A stretch of 42,768 bases of DNA from Acetobacteraceae bacterium (GTDB taxonomy: Bacteria; Pseudomonadota; Alphaproteobacteria; Acetobacterales; Acetobacteraceae). A program made the translations under genes and the position numbers. Shown here in pieces: positions 416-11,234 of this stretch (position 1 is the first letter of the stretch; each line of letters opens with the position of its first letter). The notes beneath the pieces were generated by a model. The model searched no databases. It was not told the origin of the DNA and saw only the letters and a program-made list of their open reading frames with translations. The stretch is taken from the NCBI GenBank assembly GCA_030037175.1, contig JASHRV010000290.1:1-42768 (forward strand). The letters run 5' to 3'.

Positions 416-477
416 GTTCTTTCCCGAAAGAACCTTTTTCCGTTTTCCGGACCCGGCGCCACCCCGGGACTCCGAAC
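416..477 (-). repeat. Composite hairpin repeat, copy A
   Basis: An 8-bp stem (GTTCTTTC at 416-423, GAAAGAAC at 426-433) sits next to a T-rich tract and a conserved tail that begins CCGTTTTCCGG at 440-450 and ends with GGGACTCCGAAC at 477. The same tail recurs at 1767-1804, at 3141-3175 and, inverted, at 3186-3221. It lies between the doxDA stop and the GMC gene start, so in the sense of transcription the tail comes first and the hairpin second. A transcription terminator or RNA-end role is plausible. Coding is unlikely because the three frames differ between copies. Confidence 0.75.
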
Positions 478-3104: not shown

Positions 3105-3175
3105 GTTCTCTTTTGAAAAAGAGAACCAGAAAACTTTTCCCCGTTTTCCGGACCCGGCGCCATCTCGGGACTCCG
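3105..3175 (-). repeat. Composite hairpin repeat, copy C (left half of an inverted pair)
   Basis: The stem GTTCTCTTTT/AAAAGAGAAC (3105-3126) is a 10-bp perfect match. The tail CCGTTTTCCGG (3141-3151) to CGGGACTCCG (3166-3175) follows. The stem sequence differs from copies A and B but pairing is kept, which suggests the fold is what matters. Confidence 0.75.
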
Positions 3176-3185
3176 ACCGTCCGTC

Positions 3186-3301: not shown

Positions 3302-4801
3302 TCACACATTCTCCAGCCCGAGCACCTTCGCCGTCTCGGCCCGGACTGTCCGCGTCGTTTCCGCGTCCTCGATCAGGTTCACGCCGTAGGAGGGGATGAT
3401 TTCCTTGAGCTTCGGCAGCCAGGCGTTCGGCGTCAGCTCGCCCGCGAAATATGTCTCCAGCACGCTGATCGCGATGAAGGCCGCGGTCGAGGCGCCCGGC
3501 GAGGCGCCCAGCAGTGCGACCAGGGAGTGGTCTTCGGCCCCCACGAGCTCGGTCCCGAATTCCAGGAATCCCCCGCGCTTCGCATCGGGCTTGATGATCT
3601 CGACCCGCTGCCCGGCGACCTGGAGCCGCCAGTCGTCCGTTTGCGCCTGCGGGTAATATTCGTCGAGCGCGGCGAGCCGGTGGCTTTCGGACTGGAGCAC
3701 CTGGCCCACGAGATATTCGGTGAGGTCGAAATTGTCCCGCGCCACCGAGAGCAGCGGCTCGACATTCGCCGGCCGCACGGATTCGAGAAGATCGAGCAGC
3801 GATCCGTGCTTGAGGAACTTGCTGGAGAATCCGGCATAGGGCCCGAACAGCAGGGAGCGCTTGCCCCCGATCACGCGCGTATCCAGGTGCGGCACGGACA
3901 TCGGCGGCGAGCCCACCGGCGCCTTGCCGTAAACCTTGGCATGGTGCCGGTCCACCACCTTGGGGTCGTCGCAGCGGAGCCAGAGCCCGCTCACCGGGAA
4001 CCCGCCATAGCCGCGCCCCTCGGGAATGCCCGATTCCTGCAACAGCGGCAGCGCCCCGCCGCCCGCCCCGATGAACACGAACTTCGCCGTGGCCGAGCGC
4101 TCCTCCCCGCTCGCGCGGTCGCGCATCTTCACCCGCCACCGCCCGCCCTCCTCGCGCGCGAAGCCCGTGACATGGTGCCGGTAATGAAGCGCGAATCCGG
4201 GCTGGGATTGCAGATAATGGACGAGCAGGTGCGTCAGCGCCCCGTAATCCACATCGGCGCCGGTCACGATCCGCGTCGCCGCGACCGGCTCGTCCTCGGC
4301 TCGCCCTTCCATCACCAGCGGCACCCAGCCGGCGAGCACCTTGCGGTCCTCGGTATATTCCATGCCGTGATAGCAATGATGCGCGGACATCGCCGCGAAT
4401 CGCCGTTTCAAAAAATCGACGTTCGCGGCACTCCACACGAAGCTCATATGCGGCACGGGGTGGATGAAGCCGCGCGGGTCGGCGATCGCGCCCTTCCTGA
4501 CGAGGTGGGACCAGAACTGCCGGGAGAGGTCGAACTCGACGTTCACCGTGAGCGCCCTCGAGATATCGACGCTCCCGTCCTTCCGCTCGGGCGTGTAGTT
4601 CAGCTCGCAATTGGCGGCATGTCCCGTGCCGGCATTGTTCCAGGCCTCGGAGCTTTCGAGCGCGCAGTCCTCGAGCGTCTCGAACATCGCGATCGAGAGC
4701 GAAGGGGCGAGCTCGCGCAGGAACACGCCCAGCGTCGCGCTCATGATCCCGGCCCCGATCAGGATCACGTCCGGGCTTTCGTCCGCAACCGTCGCGCTCA
4801 T
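3302..4801 (-). CDS. mqo: Malate:quinone oxidoreductase
   Basis: 499 residues, usual length for this FAD-dependent peripheral membrane enzyme that oxidises L-malate to oxaloacetate and reduces quinone in the TCA cycle. The N-terminal FAD motif is VILIGAGIMSATLG at about residues 12-25. Family blocks follow: SSEAWNNAGTGHAANCELNYTP, RGFIHPVPHMSFVW, FIGAGGGALPLLQESGIPEGRGYGGFPVSG, LLFGPYAGFSSKFLK and LLGASPGASTAAFIAISVLE. Start ATG 4801 is set by a GGGAGGA ribosome site; an upstream in-frame ATG at 4855 would overlap the cupin gene and has no such site. It is the last gene of a three-gene minus-strand run (small protein, cupin, mqo; gaps 12 and 22 bp). Confidence 0.95.
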   Translation of the reverse strand: MSATVADESPDVILIGAGIMSATLGVFLRELAPSLSIAMFETLEDCALESSEAWNNAGTGHAANCELNYTPERKDGSVDISRALTVNVEFDLSRQFWSHLVRKGAIADPRGFIHPVPHMSFVWSAANVDFLKRRFAAMSAHHCYHGMEYTEDRKVLAGWVPLVMEGRAEDEPVAATRIVTGADVDYGALTHLLVHYLQSQPGFALHYRHHVTGFAREEGGRWRVKMRDRASGEERSATAKFVFIGAGGGALPLLQESGIPEGRGYGGFPVSGLWLRCDDPKVVDRHHAKVYGKAPVGSPPMSVPHLDTRVIGGKRSLLFGPYAGFSSKFLKHGSLLDLLESVRPANVEPLLSVARDNFDLTEYLVGQVLQSESHRLAALDEYYPQAQTDDWRLQVAGQRVEIIKPDAKRGGFLEFGTELVGAEDHSLVALLGASPGASTAAFIAISVLETYFAGELTPNAWLPKLKEIIPSYGVNLIEDAETTRTVRAETAKVLGLENV

Positions 4802-4823
4802 GACTGTCCTCCCGCGCCTCGGA

Positions 4824-5210
4824 TCAGGCGCCCGGCTTGAACGGAACCGCGGCATCCGGGGCGAGGATCACATAGGCCCGCCGCCAGGGCTGCTCGTCGA
4901 TCAGCTTCCAGCGATGCCCGGTGCCGGCGGTGTCCTCGGCATAGAGCACGTCGCCCGGATGGAGGGTGAAATGCTTGCCCTCGCGGGTCTGGAAATCGAG
5001 CGTGCCGGAGAGCGTGATCACGAACTGCCGGGCGGGCGCGGTGTGCCAGGCGAAGGCCCCGCCCGATTCCGTCTCCTGGAACGAGATGCTCGCGGCCCCC
5101 ATCGTCCCGCTCAGCAGGTCCCCGCGCGCGCCTTCCTCGAGATGAAGCTTTCCCTCCTCGAAATGGGAATTGCCCTCATCCCCGGCCCAGAGCCGCACGC
5201 ATCGGATCAT
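4824..5210 (-). CDS. Cupin-domain protein
   Basis: 128 residues, one cupin barrel. The second half shows the usual pattern of a glycine-bounded hairpin (ITLSGTLDFQTREGKHFTLHPGDVLYAEDTAGTGHRW) with a terminal His; the first metal-binding motif is reduced to AFAWHTAPARQFVITLSG. Cupins bind a metal and act as small-molecule enzymes or sensors; no substrate can be assigned. The ribosome site GAGGGGG overlaps the stop codon of the upstream small gene, and the stop lies 22 bp before mqo, so it is co-transcribed with mqo and may be translationally coupled to the upstream gene. Confidence 0.75.
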   Translation of the reverse strand: MIRCVRLWAGDEGNSHFEEGKLHLEEGARGDLLSGTMGAASISFQETESGGAFAWHTAPARQFVITLSGTLDFQTREGKHFTLHPGDVLYAEDTAGTGHRWKLIDEQPWRRAYVILAPDAAVPFKPGA

Positions 5211-5222
5211 CGGTTCGCCCCC

Positions 5223-5492
5223 TCACGCCAGCGCGGCCCTCACCCGCTCGAACGCCGCGTCCGAAACGCTAGCATCTCCGTCGGCGAGCGTATCCCAGCA
5301 GAATTTCAGCGCCCGCCGCTCGGCGGGGCTGAGCGCGATCTCGACCATGGCCCCGCCTTTGGCGATGGCCTCTCTCACCGCGGCCAGGCCGGCGCGCGCG
5401 GGCTCGCGATGGATCGCCGCGCCCGGATCGTCGATCGCCTTCTCGGCGAGCTCGGCCAGAAGCTCGGCGTCGTGACGGGTGAAGCTCGGCAT
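5223..5492 (-). CDS. Small conserved-looking helical protein, function unknown
   Basis: 89 residues, no signal peptide and no membrane segment. It is predicted to be mostly helical (FTRHDAELLAELAEKAIDD..., PAERRALKFCWDTLADGDAS). I do not recognise a family. ATG at 5492 has AAGGG five bases upstream. It is first in the run leading to cupin and mqo and divergent from the nuclease-helicase gene. The tight 12-bp gap to the cupin gene and the ribosome site shared with its stop codon support it being a real gene. Confidence 0.6.
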   Translation of the reverse strand: MPSFTRHDAELLAELAEKAIDDPGAAIHREPARAGLAAVREAIAKGGAMVEIALSPAERRALKFCWDTLADGDASVSDAAFERVRAALA

Positions 5493-5755
5493 GTACCCTT
5501 TACTATAGGGATTCTGCGGCGCCGGGCGAGCCGGGCCATTCCCGCCCGCGCAAGTCATTGTTTTCGCTCGCCTTTCATCCAAACCCTCGCTTTCCCTTCC
5601 GCTTATCCCTTTGATTCTGAACAACAATCCCCCTCCACCATGCCCCCTGTACGTCCAATCCGTCCAACCCGATTTTTCCCGATCCCCCAATTCCCAAGCA
5701 ACTCCAAAACGTTTCATCCTAAACCTGCAACATGCTTCATTCCCCGCCCTGAAAC
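5493..5755. other. Divergent promoter region, no gene seen
   Basis: 263 bp between the divergent small-protein and nuclease-helicase genes. It is less GC-rich and strongly pyrimidine-biased on the plus strand. Promoters for both directions must lie here, but no -35/-10 pair stands out, and no ribosome site precedes the ATG at 5756. Confidence 0.4.
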
Positions 5756-7771
5756 ATGTCGGCCCACGAATCAGCCATCGTCGCCACCTTTCTGGCCGAC
5801 GACCCCGCCGCCATCGCCGCGCGCCTCGCCGCGGCACAGCTCCGCCATTTTCGCCTGACCGAGCCGGCTGCCCTCGCCGCCTGGGACATCACAATCACCG
5901 TTCTGCGTTCGGCGCTCGCGGCAATTCCCGCCGCACGCAACTGGCGGCTCCTGCTCGAATATCCGCTGCTCCGACTTGGCCGCCGGATCGACGCCGTTCT
6001 GATTGCTCCGCAGATGGTTCTGGTGCTCGAGTTCAAGGCGAGAGCCACCGAATTCGCCTCCGCTCACCTCCGCCAGGTCGAGGACTATGCGATCGACCTC
6101 CGCGATTTCCACGCGCGAAGCCGCGCGATCCCGATCGTGCCGATCCTGATCGCAACCGAGGCCGACCCACCCATGTCCGAGTGGCCGCTCGCCCTGAACG
6201 ATGTCCATTCTCCATTGTGCGCCTCGGCCGCCTCGCTCGGTCCCCTGCTCGCCAAGCTCGATCGTCACTTCCCGCCGCTCACCCTCCCCATCGACGGGCT
6301 GGCCTGGGAGCGAGCTTCCTACCGGCCGGTGCCGGGCATCATCGACGCGGCAAGAATGCTTTACGCGCGGCACGATGTATCCGAGATCGCGACCGCCCGT
6401 GCGGGCGCGGCCGAGCTCGGGCGGACAACAACGGCGATTATGGAAGCGGTGCGGCTGGCCGAGGCGGAACGGCGCCATCTCGTGCTGTTCGTCACCGGGG
6501 TGCCCGGCTCCGGGAAAACGCTTGTTGGATTGAACTCGGTATTCGGAGCCGGGCGGGAGCTTGGCGCCGCCTATCTTACCGGCAACCCCACGCTCGTTCA
6601 TGTGCTGCGGGAGGCGCTCGTCCGCGACGCGGCACAGGGGCGAAGGAATAGGCTCCGTTTCGCACGGCACAAGGTGAAGGCCAAAATCCAGCCTCTGCCG
6701 GAGTTCCGGGATCGGTACGTCGTCAACCCGCATGAAGTGCCTGCCGAACGCGTCATCGTGATCGACGAAGCGCAACGCTGTTGGTCGCGCGACTATGCCG
6801 TGCGGAAAAGCCAGGACCGTCGCGCCAAGCTCACCGATTCGGAGCCCGCGCACCTGCTCGAGATCATGGGTCGTCACAATGATTGGGCCGCGATTGTGTG
6901 CCTGGTCGGCAACGGTCAGGAAATCCATATCGGCGAAGGTGGCTTGGCCGAATGGGGCGTGGCGCTCCACAAGCGCCCTCTTTGGGTAAGCGAAGCCGCC
7001 GGGGCAACCCGTGACGCCACCGACCCCCGCCAATGCCTCCCATCTCTTCCCAACTTCACCGAAAACTCAGCGCTCGCGCTGACGGTACCGATGCGCGCGA
7101 TCCGCAACGAAGCCGCGCCGCGTTGGGTCGATGCCATCCTGGCAAATGCACCCACGGAGGCGCGGCATATCGCCGACAAGGAAGGCGGTGTGCCGTTCCG
7201 GATGACGCGTGATCCGGCGGCAATGCGGCGGGCGCTCCGCGCCCTCGCGGCGGACGGATGCCATGCTGGCCTTGTTGCCAGTTCCGGAGCACGTCGCTTA
7301 CGCCCCGAGGGCTTTGGCGTCGAACTACCGCATATGGATGTCGCCGCCGTGACGCGCTGGTTTCTCGACCGCTGGCCGGATGTGCGCGCCGCCGACGCGC
7401 TCGAGGTCCCGGCCACCGAGTTCTGCTGTCAGGGGCTGGAGCTCGACTATGTGGGCCTCTGTTGGGGCGGGGACCTCATCCGCCAAAGCGGCGCTTGGCA
7501 AGTACGTGCCTTCCGCGGCGACCGCTGGACGCTCGCGCGCGTTGCTGAGGCTGTCGCCAATGCGATGAACACGTACCGAGTGCTTCTGACCCGCGCCCGC
7601 TACGACACGATTCTCTGGGTGCCCCAAGGCAGCGCCGAGGATCGGACCCGCCCGCCTGAACTCTATGATAAAATCGCTTCCTTCCTCCTCGACTGTGGCG
7701 TGCATCCATTGGATGACTCACAGCCTCCGCATTCCATTCCCTCACCTCATCTCACTCTCGTCCCACGATGA
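5756..7771 (+). CDS. PD-(D/E)XK-like nuclease fused to DUF2075/Schlafen-group-3-like helicase
   Basis: 671 residues. The first 130 residues carry a nuclease-like core: E68, D79 in GRRIDAVL, then LVLEFKA with E92 and K94, i.e. the D-x(n)-ExK pattern of restriction-endonuclease folds. A P-loop ATPase follows: Walker A GVPGSGKT (248-255), Walker B VIVIDEAQ (333-340), and NTYRVLLTRAR near residue 606, matching motif VI of superfamily 1 helicases. This layout fits DUF2075 (COG3410, Schlafen group 3-like DNA/RNA helicase). The role is probably nucleic-acid processing, possibly phage or plasmid defence, but no experiment on this subfamily is known to me. Its stop overlaps the start of the next gene (ATGA at 7768). 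Codon choice looks less biased than in its neighbours, which hints at acquisition. Confidence 0.8.
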   Translation: MSAHESAIVATFLADDPAAIAARLAAAQLRHFRLTEPAALAAWDITITVLRSALAAIPAARNWRLLLEYPLLRLGRRIDAVLIAPQMVLVLEFKARATEFASAHLRQVEDYAIDLRDFHARSRAIPIVPILIATEADPPMSEWPLALNDVHSPLCASAASLGPLLAKLDRHFPPLTLPIDGLAWERASYRPVPGIIDAARMLYARHDVSEIATARAGAAELGRTTTAIMEAVRLAEAERRHLVLFVTGVPGSGKTLVGLNSVFGAGRELGAAYLTGNPTLVHVLREALVRDAAQGRRNRLRFARHKVKAKIQPLPEFRDRYVVNPHEVPAERVIVIDEAQRCWSRDYAVRKSQDRRAKLTDSEPAHLLEIMGRHNDWAAIVCLVGNGQEIHIGEGGLAEWGVALHKRPLWVSEAAGATRDATDPRQCLPSLPNFTENSALALTVPMRAIRNEAAPRWVDAILANAPTEARHIADKEGGVPFRMTRDPAAMRRALRALAADGCHAGLVASSGARRLRPEGFGVELPHMDVAAVTRWFLDRWPDVRAADALEVPATEFCCQGLELDYVGLCWGGDLIRQSGAWQVRAFRGDRWTLARVAEAVANAMNTYRVLLTRARYDTILWVPQGSAEDRTRPPELYDKIASFLLDCGVHPLDDSQPPHSIPSPHLTLVPR

Positions 7772-8640
7772 CCCGCCGCCTCGTTCTCCTCCTCGTCCTG
7801 CTGCTCTCCCTCCCCGCCGCCGCCCTCGCCGCCACGCTGAAGGTCGCGACCTGGAACATGGAGTGGTTCACGCTCCGCCCCGCCGGCGATCCCTCGCTGC
7901 CCCCCTCGGTCAGGCCGAAGCGCCCTGAGGACATCGCGCGCCTGCGCGCCTATGCCGACATCCTGAACGCCGACGTCGTCGCCATGGAGGAGGTCGATGG
8001 CCCCGTCCCCGCCGCCGAGGTCTTCACCCCCGACCGCTACGTGCTCCACTTCACCGCCGATCACGTGGTCCAGCGGGTCGGGCTCGCCATCCGCCGCTCC
8101 ATCCCGTTCACCGCCAACCCGGACGTCACCGCGCTCGATCCCTATTCGCCCGACGCGCCCGAGCAGCTCCGCAGCGGCGCCGACGTCACGCTTCATCTCG
8201 GCGGGGCAAATCTCCGCATCCTCGCCGTTCATCTGAAGACCGGCTGCTGGGAAGTCCCGCTCGACTCGTCCCGCCCCGCCTGCGCGGTTCTCCGCGAGCA
8301 GCTTCCGGTCATCGAAAGCTGGATCGCGGCCCGCCGCGCTGCCGGCACGCCTTTCCTCGTCCTCGGCGATTTCAACCGCGTCCTCGGCCCGGACGATTCC
8401 TTCCTCGCCGGCCTCGATCACGTCACCCCGCTCGCCGTCGCCACCGCAGGCGTGCGCAATCCCTGCTGGGGCGGCCGCTATTCCACCTTCATCGACCAGA
8501 TCCTCGCCGGCGATGCCGCCCGCGCCTGGATGGACCCGGAGAGCTTCCGTGTGCTCGTCTATCGCGAGACCGCCCCCATCTGGAAAGAGCGGCTCTCCGA
8601 CCATTGCCCCGTGATGGTGGATTTCAACCTGCCCGGCTAA
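7768..8640 (+). CDS. Secreted endonuclease/exonuclease/phosphatase-family protein
   Basis: 290 residues. Residues 1-21 form a Sec signal peptide (MTRRLVLLLVLLLSLPAAALA). The EEP fold motifs are in order: ATWNMEW (N30, E32), MEEVD with the metal-binding Glu, GDFNR (D201, N203) and SDHCPV with the general-base His at 279. The family cleaves phosphodiester or phosphate ester bonds in DNA, lipids or inositol phosphates using Mg2+; which one applies is not visible. Export means it works in the periplasm or outside the cell. It overlaps the nuclease-helicase gene by 4 nt (ATGA), so the two are translated together, and ydfG begins 8 bp after its stop. Confidence 0.85.
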   Translation: MTRRLVLLLVLLLSLPAAALAATLKVATWNMEWFTLRPAGDPSLPPSVRPKRPEDIARLRAYADILNADVVAMEEVDGPVPAAEVFTPDRYVLHFTADHVVQRVGLAIRRSIPFTANPDVTALDPYSPDAPEQLRSGADVTLHLGGANLRILAVHLKTGCWEVPLDSSRPACAVLREQLPVIESWIAARRAAGTPFLVLGDFNRVLGPDDSFLAGLDHVTPLAVATAGVRNPCWGGRYSTFIDQILAGDAARAWMDPESFRVLVYRETAPIWKERLSDHCPVMVDFNLPG

Positions 8641-8648
8641 GGACTCTC

Positions 8649-9404
8649 ATGCCCCATACTCTTTTCGTCTCCGGCGCCTCCGCCGGCTTCGGCGCCGCCA
8701 TCGCCCGCCGCTTCATCGCCGACGGCCATCGCGTCATCGCCGCCGCCCGCCGCGGCGACCGGCTCGCCGCGCTCGGGCAGGAGCTTGGCGAGCGCCTGCT
8801 ACCCTTCACCCTCGACGTCACCGACGCCGAGGCGGTCGCCGCGCTGCCCGGCTCCCTTCCCGCCGGCTGGCAGGAGGTGGACGTGCTCGTGAACAACGCG
8901 GGCCTCGCCCTCGGCCTCGATCCCGCCCAGCGCGCCAAACTCTCGGACTGGGACCAGATGGTCGCGACCAACGTCACCGGCCTTATCCACCTCACCCACG
9001 CCTTTCTGCCCGGTATGGCCGCGCGCGATCGCGGCCATATCGTCAATCTCGGCAGCACCGCCGCCCACTATCCCTATCCGGGCGGACACGTGTACGGCGC
9101 CTCGAAGGCGTTCGTCGCTCAGTTCAGCCTCAACCTGCGCGCCGATCTCGTCGGCACCAATGTCCGCGTCAGCGACCTCGATCCCGGCCTCGTCGGCGGC
9201 ACCGAGTTCAGCACGGTCCGTTTCGGCGATCCGGCCCGCGCGGCCGCGATCTATGCCGGCACCACGCCGCTCACGCCGGAGGACATCGCGGAGGCCGTCG
9301 CGTGGGTCGTCGGCCTGCCGCCGCACTTCAACGTCAACCGCATGGAGATCATGCCCACCTGCCAGGCGCCCGGGCCGCTTGCGATCAAACGGCGGGGGGG
9401 CTGA
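8649..9404 (+). CDS. ydfG: Short-chain dehydrogenase, YdfG-type 3-hydroxy acid/malonic semialdehyde reductase
   Basis: 251 residues, co-linear with E. coli YdfG. The NADP-binding motif SGASAGFG is at residues 8-15, the NNAG motif near 83-86 (VLVNNAGLALG), and the catalytic Ser-Tyr-Lys set appears as NLGSTAAHYPYPGGHVYGASK. LDPGLVGGTEFS and the C-terminal EIMPTCQA block are specific to the YdfG group. The E. coli enzyme reduces malonic semialdehyde and oxidises serine or 3-hydroxy acids with NADP. ATG 8649 follows the preceding stop by 8 bp. The 3' end overlaps the convergent inositol-phosphatase-family gene by 20 nt. Confidence 0.88.
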   Translation: MPHTLFVSGASAGFGAAIARRFIADGHRVIAAARRGDRLAALGQELGERLLPFTLDVTDAEAVAALPGSLPAGWQEVDVLVNNAGLALGLDPAQRAKLSDWDQMVATNVTGLIHLTHAFLPGMAARDRGHIVNLGSTAAHYPYPGGHVYGASKAFVAQFSLNLRADLVGTNVRVSDLDPGLVGGTEFSTVRFGDPARAAAIYAGTTPLTPEDIAEAVAWVVGLPPHFNVNRMEIMPTCQAPGPLAIKRRGG

Positions 9405-10191
9405 GCGCGATCCCGGCGATCTCCGCCATCGCCGCCGCGATCCCCGGTGCCGCGGCGAGCACCGGCCCTCCGCGCTCGAGCCCGTCCGCGGCGAGGAACG
9501 GGTTGATCCGCCCGCCTGCCTCCCGCACCAGCAGCAGGCCGGCGAGGCAGTCCCAGGCATTGATGTGCAGCTCGGCATAGGCGTCCGTCCGTGCGTCCGC
9601 GACATAGGCGAGCCCGAGCGCGCCCGAGCCGCCGCGCCGCACCGATGCCCCCGCCGCCATGACTTTTCCGAGCAGATCGATATAGCGCGCAGCCTCGACC
9701 CGCGCGGACCAGCCGATCTCGACCATCGCCTCGCCCATCGCGTCCGTCTGCGCAGCTTCGATCCGCTCGCCGTTCCGCGTCGCACCCCGCCCGGCCCTGG
9801 CGAAATAGAGCTCGCCCAGCACCGGATCGAGGATCGCGCCGAGCGTCATCTCGCCCTCGGCGAGGAAGGCGGCCGAGATGCAGAAATGGGGCAGGCCGCG
9901 CACGAAGTTCGCCGTGCCATCGATCGGATCGACGACCCAGAGTCCCCCGCCCCTCGATTCCCCGCCGCCCGTCTCCTCGCCGAGAAAGCCATCCTGGGGA
10001 AAAGCGCCGAGCAGAAGCCCGCGAAAGAGCCGCTCCACCGCCCCGTCTGCGGCGCTCACGAAATCCTGCGGCCCCTTGCGCCCAACCTCCAGCCGTGCCG
10101 GCGCGGCGAGATAGGAGAGCGCTTCCGCGCCCGCCGCCTTCATTGCCTCCCGCAAAACCGTCTCGCGGGAATCGATCTCCTCGTCCCTCAC
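9385..10191 (-). CDS. Inositol monophosphatase-family protein
   Basis: 268 residues, usual length. Metal-binding motifs of the Li+-sensitive phosphatase superfamily are present: LGEET (E72, E73), DPIDGTANF (D88, D91) and INAWDCLAG near residue 215. The family removes phosphate from inositol phosphates, histidinol phosphate or 3'-phosphoadenosine phosphate. Position after lacI with an ATGA overlap (10188-10191) and next to iolD argues for an inositol-related substrate, by inference. It converges on ydfG with a 20-nt overlap. Confidence 0.88.
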   Translation of the reverse strand: MRDEEIDSRETVLREAMKAAGAEALSYLAAPARLEVGRKGPQDFVSAADGAVERLFRGLLLGAFPQDGFLGEETGGGESRGGGLWVVDPIDGTANFVRGLPHFCISAAFLAEGEMTLGAILDPVLGELYFARAGRGATRNGERIEAAQTDAMGEAMVEIGWSARVEAARYIDLLGKVMAAGASVRRGGSGALGLAYVADARTDAYAELHINAWDCLAGLLLVREAGGRINPFLAADGLERGGPVLAAAPGIAAAMAEIAGIALSPPAV

Positions 10192-11234
10192 TGCCGCACG
10201 CTTCCGCGTTCGACCAACGCCACCGGCAGCATGACCGGCGGGGTTCCTGGCGGGGGCTCCTCCTCATCCGCCAACGCCGCCATCACTGCATCGACCAGCC
10301 GTGGCATGGACTGGCAGAGCGTCGTCAGCCGGTAGCCGAGCCAGGCGGCCTGCGGGATATCGTCGAAGCCGATCACCGAGACTTCCTCCGGAATGCCCCA
10401 GCCGAGCTCGTGCCGCGCCCCGTCCATGAAACCCATGGCGATCAGGTCGGTGACGCAGAAGGCACCGTCGATTTCGGGCCCTGCTTGCTCCATGCCGCCC
10501 TGCCGCGCGCCGAGCAGCCCGCGCACAGCGCGCAGGCCCGTCTCATAGCCGGTCGGCCCTTGGGACCAGACCACGGAGGAAAGCCCGCGCGCGGCGATAT
10601 AAGCCGAAAACGCGTCGATCCGCCGCGTGATGCTTGCCGTGCCGCTGGCGCTGCCGATCACCGCGAGCCGCCGGCAGCCGGCCGCCAGCAGCCGCTCCGC
10701 CGCAAGCCTGGCGCCGGCCGCATCGTCGCAGAGGATGGTGTGCGCGGCGAGCTCGGGCAGCGGCTTATTGATCAGGATGACCCGGAGGCCCGAGCGGCGG
10801 CACTCCTCGACGATTGTGGTCGGCGGCGTGCCGGAGAGGATCACCACGGCGCGGGCGCGGAACTCGAGCAGTGTCTCGATCAGCGGGGCAACATCCGACC
10901 CGCTTCTATCGGCGTTCAGCAGCAGGCACTGCATGTCCGCGGCAAGGAGCGCCTCGCTCAAGGCCGCGACCTGGCTGCCATGAAACGGTGTGGCGAGATT
11001 GGAGCCGACCAGCCCGACAAGGCGCGAGCGTGCCTGGATCAGGCTCTGGGCCAACCGGTTGACTCGGTAGCCCATCGCCGCCGCCACTTTCATCACCCGG
11101 CTCCGCGCTTCCGGCGAGACGCTGGCCCCAGGCGTGAAGGCGCGGCTCACGGTTGAGCGCGAGACCTGCGCTGCGCGTGCGACAGCGTCGGCCGTGACGA
11201 AATGCCGCGAAGAGGGATCAGCCTGTCGGTTCAT
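10188..11234 (-). CDS. LacI-family transcriptional regulator
   Basis: 348 residues. The helix-turn-helix at about residues 12-35 (VTADAVARAAQVSRSTVSRAF) contains the VSRxTVSR recognition helix, and the hinge region MGYRVNRLAQSL is typical of the family. A periplasmic-binding-protein-like effector domain follows (LVGLVGSNLATPFHG, SVIGFDDIPQAAWLGYRLTT). Effectors are usually sugars or polyols. It is transcribed with the inositol-phosphatase-family gene (4-nt overlap), and iolD upstream on the same strand ends 79 bp before it. That gap holds a strong palindrome, so autoregulation and control by inositol or a derivative are likely. Confidence 0.92.
   Translation of the reverse strand: MNRQADPSSRHFVTADAVARAAQVSRSTVSRAFTPGASVSPEARSRVMKVAAAMGYRVNRLAQSLIQARSRLVGLVGSNLATPFHGSQVAALSEALLAADMQCLLLNADRSGSDVAPLIETLLEFRARAVVILSGTPPTTIVEECRRSGLRVILINKPLPELAAHTILCDDAAGARLAAERLLAAGCRRLAVIGSASGTASITRRIDAFSAYIAARGLSSVVWSQGPTGYETGLRAVRGLLGARQGGMEQAGPEIDGAFCVTDLIAMGFMDGARHELGWGIPEEVSVIGFDDIPQAAWLGYRLTTLCQSMPRLVDAVMAALADEEEPPPGTPPVMLPVALVERGSVRQ

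What the first reader, a model, noticed from the sequence alone, without database searches (positions are those of the whole stretch)
5756..8640. Nuclease-helicase fusion translationally coupled to a secreted nuclease-fold protein
A 671-residue protein carries a PD-(D/E)XK-like core (E68, D79, E92-x-K94) ahead of a Schlafen-group-3-like helicase with intact Walker A/B and a motif VI. Its last codons overlap (ATGA) an EEP-family enzyme with a signal peptide. A nuclease plus helicase layout is common in defence proteins, and pairing with an exported phosphoesterase is unusual. This is the best candidate here for an undescribed functional pair.
Basis: partly seen in the sequence, partly recalled or inferred. 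Interest (0 to 1): 0.62.

Follow-up and report, generated by a model that had tools for sequence, protein, structure and literature searches.

The report
Defence-candidate nuclease-helicase beside exported phosphodiesterase
A real nuclease-helicase of a family already listed as a candidate anti-phage protein sits next to a probably exported phosphodiesterase gene, most likely because both belong to an old chromosomal gene block of these bacteria; either gene is often found without the other, so this is probably not a new two-part machine.

Summary
ORF 5756-7771 has the stated nuclease residues, Walker A/B and motif VI, and overlaps an EEP-family gene (7768-8640) by ATGA. It is a full-length member of PADLOC's candidate defence family PDC-S41 (702 bits). 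E68, D79, E92 and K94 are kept in 68 of 72, 72 of 73, 69 of 73 and 69 of 73 family sequences and invariant in a 19-sequence set with four members from other families. The 'undescribed functional pair' fares badly. The EEP gene is in 116 of 150 family genomes; 47 of those lack the helicase. Within 3 kb, the EEP gene follows the helicase in 29 of 62 assessable genomes, and an unrelated FemAB-like gene precedes it in 29 of 62. None of 36 assessable loci outside the clade has the EEP gene. In one congener the helicase is gone except for a stretch matching its last 44 residues, and the EEP gene stands. Best reading: one old acquisition, then mostly vertical inheritance and loss; the EEP enzyme works separately. 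Anti-phage activity is inferred, not shown.

The parts
5756..7771 (+). PDC-S41 nuclease-helicase, 671 aa
   Evidence: PADLOC PDLC05014 702 bits over aa 5-653; Pfam PF09848 234.4 bits over aa 243-623; AlphaFold2 model mean pLDDT 91.2
5945..6109 (+). PD-(D/E)XK-like core, aa 64-118 (E68, D79, E92, K94)
   Evidence: Residue conservation; strand and helix order in the model; NERD model matched below its cut-off in 8 of 10 N-termini
6497..6520 (+). Walker A, GVPGSGKT, aa 248-255
   Evidence: K254 75 of 75; G248, P250, G251, G253, K254, T255 invariant in 65 sequences
6758..6778 (+). Walker B, VIDEAQR, aa 335-341
   Evidence: D337 75 of 76, E338 76 of 76
7574..7600 (+). helicase motif VI, YRVLLTRAR, aa 607-615
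   Evidence: Y607, R608, V609, R613 and R615 invariant in 65 sequences
7768..7771 (+). ATGA stop/start overlap
   Evidence: Read; 4-base overlap also in G006, G014, G017, G080, G091, G108
7768..8640 (+). EEP-family phosphodiesterase, 290 aa, probably exported
   Evidence: PF03372 35.4 bits; model mean pLDDT 90.2; top 50 structural rows are Z 20-23 and EEP folds; N30, E75, H155, D201, N203, D278, H279 and C160, C172, C233, C280 invariant in 16 sequences, but H244, nearly invariant, is Q in the window
7768..7833 (+). putative signal peptide, aa 1-22
   Evidence: Hydrophobic stretch ending in ALA, read by eye; helix 2-14 in the model; not tested with a predictor
8649..9404 (+). short-chain dehydrogenase next in line (ATG 8 bases after the EEP stop)
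   Evidence: PF00106 167.1 bits (scanned from 8655); follows EEP also in G058 and G134

Best explanation
The 671-residue protein is a cytoplasmic, ATP-driven nucleic-acid enzyme: a PD-(D/E)XK (NERD-like) nuclease at the N-terminus working with a Schlafen-group-3-type SF1 helicase. It belongs to PDC-S41, and its likeliest job is to attack invading or aberrant DNA on its own, as the single-gene nuclease-helicase Nhi does. In this family (Acetobacteraceae and kin, judged from named relatives) the main lineage of the gene was acquired once, stood in an old chromosomal block (RidA, FemAB-like, helicase, EEP, PPK2 in part of the genomes) and has since been mostly inherited vertically and lost or moved many times. 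The EEP protein is a separate, probably periplasmic, metal-dependent phosphodiesterase; the two genes may share an operon but are not an obligate two-part system. Shown: family membership, conserved residues, modelled folds, distribution, a helicase tree, one loss. Inferred: the enzyme activities, defence, export, co-transcription, single acquisition.
For: PDC-S41 match; 65 of 65 relatives match it. Conserved nuclease and ATPase residues. Fold neighbours UvrD Z 18.6 (rmsd 4.1, 329 aligned) and SLFN11 Z 17.4 (3.8, 279), covering about aa 190-655. The 41 family-side named loci and the window form one clade at SH-aLRT 100 in a quick tree of 81 rows, while the other rows mix phyla (the two groups were split by rank's list, so a clean split is partly built in, but the titles agree with it except for L243). 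Helicase and EEP distances agree: Mantel r 0.65 over 67 genomes, 0.54 over 26 adjacent, 0.80 over 41 not adjacent, p 0.001 each. Helicase in 78 of 150 family genomes (protein query, 1e-20); PDC-S41 in 7 of 289 class genomes, one being this one (profile, 1e-30). Block: FemAB-like, helicase, EEP and PPK2 together in 13 of 78 genomes, 12 of them with RidA. Loss in G134, whose flanks are 94-95% identical to G058. Some neighbours outside the clade are defence genes: DpdF, BrxA, PsyrT, REase_II, PDC-S02.
Against: PDC-S41 is named in 0 papers of the library, so defence is a guess from kinship and context. In this family the neighbours are mostly housekeeping, which fits a host DNA-metabolism role as well. 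The 4-base overlap in 7 genomes of 6 genera, in two of the three main branches, suggests selection for co-expression. EEP adjacency is more clustered on the helicase tree than shuffles (16 changes against a mean of 22.0, 1 of 200 as low), and within 1.1 kb it is slightly commoner than FemAB adjacency (28 of 71 against 22 of 65), so some of its persistence could be functional. No marker-gene tree was made, so vertical descent rests on two genes. The nuclease fold was not tested by itself against solved structures.
Confidence: 0.6

Rival explanations
1. The two genes are a true two-compartment system: the exported EEP enzyme attacks incoming nucleic acid outside the inner membrane and the nuclease-helicase inside, made together by translational coupling.
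For: Co-directional and within 1.1 kb in 28 of 71 assessable family genomes and in 16 of 41 family-side named loci; 4-base overlaps in 7 genomes; both proteins keep their catalytic residues.
Against: 47 of 116 EEP genomes lack the helicase; 43 of 71 assessable helicases have no adjacent EEP; 0 of 36 assessable loci outside the clade at 1e-5 and no EEP relative at 0.001 in 6 other helicase genomes (which had no positive control); FemAB-like adjacency is about as common; EEP stands after helicase loss in G134.
Confidence: 0.1
2. The helicase is a housekeeping DNA-processing or repair enzyme of this family rather than a defence protein.
For: Mostly one match per genome and housekeeping neighbours such as FemAB-like, PPK2 and RidA; one main clade; fold nearest to UvrD by Z.
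Against: Not found in 72 of 150 family genomes, 58 of the 125 that are at least 90% complete and at most 5% contaminated, G134 among them; elsewhere patchy, mixed between phyla and sometimes beside defence genes.
Confidence: 0.25
3. The helicase acts on RNA (translation shut-off or RNA decay), as animal Schlafens do.
For: SLFN11/SLFN14 are among the best fold matches, and Foldseek ranks SLFN11, Sen1 and Upf1 at the top, though with TM-scores near 0.3.
Against: The N-terminus carries PD-(D/E)XK/NERD-type residues and no Schlafen core model was matched; such nucleases mostly cut DNA (general knowledge).
Confidence: 0.1

Closest known systems
PDC-S41 (PADLOC-DB 2.0.0 candidate)
   Same: Full-length profile match, 702 bits, aa 5-653; 65 of 65 relatives match
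   Different: The 6 other class members found score 853-963 bits, so this family is an off-centre branch; common in its family rather than rare
Nhi (SERP2475), a single-gene nuclease-helicase
   Same: One-protein nuclease plus helicase; described as DNA nicking and unwinding, with phage SSB variation linked to escape (passages of PMC12904381; of PMC11811056)
   Different: Window protein matches the PADLOC Nhi model only at E 0.045; 2 of 65 relatives match it at 1e-5 or better
Animal Schlafens SLFN11/SLFN14
   Same: Helicase half: Z 17.4 over 279 residues (7zep) and 16.2 over 270 (9nyy)
   Different: N-terminal nuclease is of PD-(D/E)XK type by its residues; no Schlafen core model was matched
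EEP family (DNase I, Tdp2, exonuclease III type)
   Same: Whole fold, Z 20-23 in the top 50 rows; catalytic residues conserved
   Different: Four conserved cysteines and a likely signal peptide; substrate unknown

Membership tests
PDC-S41 | Full-length match to PADLOC PDLC05014 | tested here: met
   702 bits, aa 5-653 of 671, profile 6-654 of 657
PDC-S41 | Anti-phage activity | not testable with these tools
   PDC-S41 named in 0 papers of the library
SLFN-g3_helicase (PF09848) | Score over the curated cut-off | tested here: met
   234.4 bits against 24
SLFN-g3_helicase (PF09848) | Intact Walker A and B | tested here: met
   K254 75 of 75, D337 75 of 76, E338 76 of 76
PD-(D/E)XK superfamily | Conserved E, D, E-x-K residues | tested here: met
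PD-(D/E)XK superfamily | Core fold | tested here: inconclusive
   Secondary-structure order fits; the fold-comparison rows covered mainly aa 191-655
NERD (PF08378) | Score over the curated cut-off | tested here: not met
   Window N-terminus 13.4 bits against 22.1; best of 10 N-termini 20.7
Nhi | Match to the PADLOC Nhi model | tested here: not met
   E 0.045 for the window protein; 2 of 65 relatives at 1e-5 or better
EEP family (PF03372) | Score over cut-off and conserved catalytic residues | tested here: met
   35.4 bits against 24.5; N30, E75, H155, D201, N203, D278, H279 invariant in 16 (their catalytic role is recalled)
Exported EEP enzymes | Cleavable signal peptide | tested here: inconclusive
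   Hydrophobic N-terminus read by eye; no predictor on hand
Two-gene defence system (helicase + EEP) | Genes kept together across lineages | tested here: not met
   28 of 71 in the family; 0 of 36 assessable outside the clade; 47 of 116 EEP genomes without the helicase

The most novel reading that the evidence does not exclude
In part of this family the nuclease-helicase and the exported phosphodiesterase have become a coupled two-compartment barrier against foreign DNA, kept by stop-start overlap in two of the three main branches, while other lineages lost or separated the parts.
Probability: 0.08. Interest if true: 0.6.

Novelty: new member of a known kind. Interest (0 to 1): 0.27.

Why it matters
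It shows a candidate defence family that is rare in the sampled class but common, and probably long resident, in one bacterial family with culturable members (for instance Gluconobacter and Roseomonas strains), which could be used to test whether PDC-S41 defends against phage at all. It also warns that stop-start overlap and recurrence across genera can come from old gene order alone.

Tried and rejected
A defence island around the window: nearby genes are malate:quinone oxidoreductase, a cupin, a short-chain dehydrogenase, inositol monophosphatase, a LacI regulator and a TPP enzyme; of the window only the helicase and EEP proteins were scanned against PADLOC.

Recent insertion of the helicase into the EEP operon: disfavoured, because the difference between two congeners is a loss with a remnant and the helicase clade is spread over the family.

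Mobile carriage: the helicase matched 2 of 72,556 plasmid records at 1e-30 (both Persicobacter, 34.6%) and 1 of 50,697 phage records at 1e-10. The EEP protein has relatives (26-38% in the listed rows) in 22 plasmid records at 1e-10, so it is not confined to this family.

A sequence relative of the helicase in the PDB: best E 0.0019, short stretches round the ATPase region; the EEP alignment's two PDB hits are fatty acid O-methyltransferases and look like chance. Sigma-70-like promoters in 5200-9500: none found, 0.5 expected.

Literature: PDC-S41 as an exact word, 0 papers. The listings (up to 25 titles each, abstracts' beginnings seen) showed no paper on PDC-S41 or on a helicase-EEP pair; no search was made for the pair as such after one search failed. 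Absence from print is not shown; bioRxiv is not held as a library. The paper that defined the PDC names is reference 15 of PMC12988326 and was not read. Only passages were seen of PMC12988326, PMC12839542, PMC10952713, PMC11811056 and PMC12904381.

Other counts of adjacency: gap -10 to 212 gives 26 of 69 genomes with both genes, 4 more nearby, 9 on one contig but far, 30 on different contigs. The 28 of 71 allows 1.1 kb and leaves out 7 helicases cut off by contig ends; the FemAB count used 3 kb, so recounted both with equal limits.

A longer helicase in relatives: in 25 of 78 genomes, not this one, the reading frame stays open for 120 to 557 codons upstream of the start I took; these stretches are alike only in short pieces (30 pairs at 1e-5) and may be shadows of another gene. 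Not resolved.

Full report
What is there. The coordinates and residues in the finding are correct. The 671-residue protein has Pfam SLFN-g3_helicase over residues 243-623 and is a full-length member of PADLOC's candidate family PDC-S41, 702 bits. Its N-terminus carries E68, D79 and E92-x-K94. Among 78 family sequences these are kept in 68 of 72, 72 of 73, 69 of 73 and 69 of 73, gaps left out; in 19 chosen sequences, four of them from other families of the class at 35-40% identity, all four are invariant. The AlphaFold2 model (65-row alignment, mean pLDDT 91.2) places them on consecutive strands followed by a long helix, as in PD-(D/E)XK nucleases. Pfam's NERD model is matched below its cut-off in 8 of 10 N-termini tried. 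The helicase half resembles UvrD (Z 18.6) and SLFN11 (Z 17.4). The downstream protein is an EEP enzyme by profile, fold (Z 20-23 in the top 50 rows) and residues, with one oddity, Q244 where its relatives nearly all have H.

Who has which gene. In 150 genomes of the window's family the helicase is found in 78 and the EEP gene in 116, the own genome counted in both; 69 have both and 9 the helicase only, so 47 EEP genomes lack the helicase. Some absences may be gaps in assemblies; among the 125 genomes that are at least 90% complete and at most 5% contaminated the figures are 67 and 101. In a sample of 289 genomes of the class, PDC-S41 rang in 7 at 1e-30, one being the window's own (another query and threshold). 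So the helicase is common in this family and rare around it, and the EEP gene is widespread in the family.

The pair. With contig ends allowed for, 28 of 71 assessable helicases have the EEP gene downstream on the same strand within 1.1 kb, and in 7 genomes including this one the two overlap by four bases (30 genomes, and the window). Among the 80 best relatives in genome contigs, 16 of 41 on the family's side have an EEP gene behind the helicase, and 0 of 39 others do, of which 36 have at least 1.1 kb of downstream sequence. But the helicase has a second neighbour of like durability: a FemAB-like gene upstream on the same strand. Within 1.1 kb the counts are 28 of 71 (EEP) and 22 of 65 (FemAB-like); within 3 kb they are 29 of 62 for each. 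PPK2 follows within 5 kb in 19 of 37 assessable genomes and RidA precedes within 5 kb in 23 of 47; FemAB-like, helicase, EEP and PPK2 stand together in 13 genomes, 12 of them with RidA. EEP adjacency takes 16 changes on the helicase tree (shuffle mean 22.0, 1 of 200 as low) and FemAB adjacency 12 (20.8, 0 of 200). Both look like an old gene order eroding, though selection on the helicase-EEP order is not excluded.

Descent. The 41 family-side named loci and the window form one clade at SH-aLRT 100 in a quick tree of 81 rows. I split the two sides by rank in the list, so the clean split is partly built in; the titles agree with it, the only named Acetobacteraceae on the other side being L243 (some family-side titles say no more than Rhodospirillales or Proteobacteria). 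The tree carries warnings on letter make-up for 43 rows. Other helicases mix phyla. Helicase and EEP distances correlate over 67 genomes (r 0.65), over 26 adjacent (0.54) and over 41 not adjacent (0.80), p 0.001 each; that the link is not stronger where the genes are adjacent fits shared vertical descent rather than travel as a pair. Two other genomes of the window's genus, 94-95% identical over the flanks, differ by the helicase: G134 keeps only a stretch that matches its last 44 residues (79.5%) just before the EEP gene. Loss, not insertion, made that difference, and the EEP gene persisted. Of 16 helicase-less loci searched, G134 alone showed a convincing remnant. G149 and Acetobacter garciniae carry a distant lineage of the helicase outside the family clade (in one search G149 is a long branch of unsure place).

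Context elsewhere. Up to two neighbours on each side of the 39 outside helicases (140 proteins) matched 56 PADLOC families at 1e-10, among them strong matches to DpdF, BrxA, PsyrT, REase_II and PDC-S02; 139 neighbours of the 41 family-side helicases matched 22, the best being SoFic at 1.4e-115 and SspH at 1.2e-58, the rest at 4e-39 or weaker. Only 25 of the 56 families were shown, several models can match one protein, helicase models match helicases in general, and gene calls were my own, so this is a tendency and no count of defence islands. Outside neighbours also include plain housekeeping genes. Pfam on the family-side neighbours gave FemAB-like in 16 of 139, PPK2 in 6 and other housekeeping families (25 of 93 families shown).

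Mechanism. [quoted passage not shown] NERD listed for Nhi-like and Mokosh type I systems, passage of PMC10952713). It is not a member of Nhi by the PADLOC model. PDC families come from a guilt-by-embedding screen and most are untested (passages of PMC12988326). The EEP enzyme, if exported as its N-terminus suggests, works in another compartment, which further argues against a direct partnership.

Verdict. A sound observation, a known kind of protein, and a pairing best explained by old gene order. Worth a place in a test panel for PDC-S41; unlikely to be a new two-part system.

Noticed in passing
window 443-475, 1770-1802, 3144-3176 (+): Dispersed repeat, three copies within 2.8 kb: 62 places (32 forward, 30 reverse) in the own genome at up to 2 mismatches, 0 for the reversed-pattern control, and 0 in 8 family relatives including both congeners sampled. 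Looks like a recently expanded, lineage-specific element.
   Followed up: partly
L215 and L237: PDC-S41 helicases of a planctomycete bin and Salinicola are nearly identical (end branches about 0.03), so either a recent transfer or a misbinned contig.
   Followed up: no
L183, L186, L199: In three Gluconobacter genomes the helicase lies behind what are probably the two glycyl-tRNA synthetase genes (read from gene lengths and the counts); no EEP gene within the fetched flanks.
   Followed up: no
L243; G149:C1:1884059-1885939: A distant lineage of the helicase in Acetobacter garciniae and G149, outside the family clade.
   Followed up: partly
window 5756-7771: Third-position G+C of the helicase gene is 0.75 against 0.85-0.89 in its close neighbours 3302-5210 and 7768-11234, although genes further along the window (14-38 kb) also range from 0.62 to 0.86.
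   Followed up: no
L108-L113, L115, L116, L121: In 9 of the 20 loci the EEP gene sits in another fixed place, behind alanyl-tRNA synthetase and a carbonic anhydrase (order, sequences; labels by eye).
   Followed up: no
upstream of the helicase in 25 of 78 family genomes (e.g. G107, G024, G063): The helicase reading frame stays open for 120-557 codons upstream, with short alike pieces between genomes: an N-terminal extension, a further gene, or a shadow frame.
   Followed up: partly
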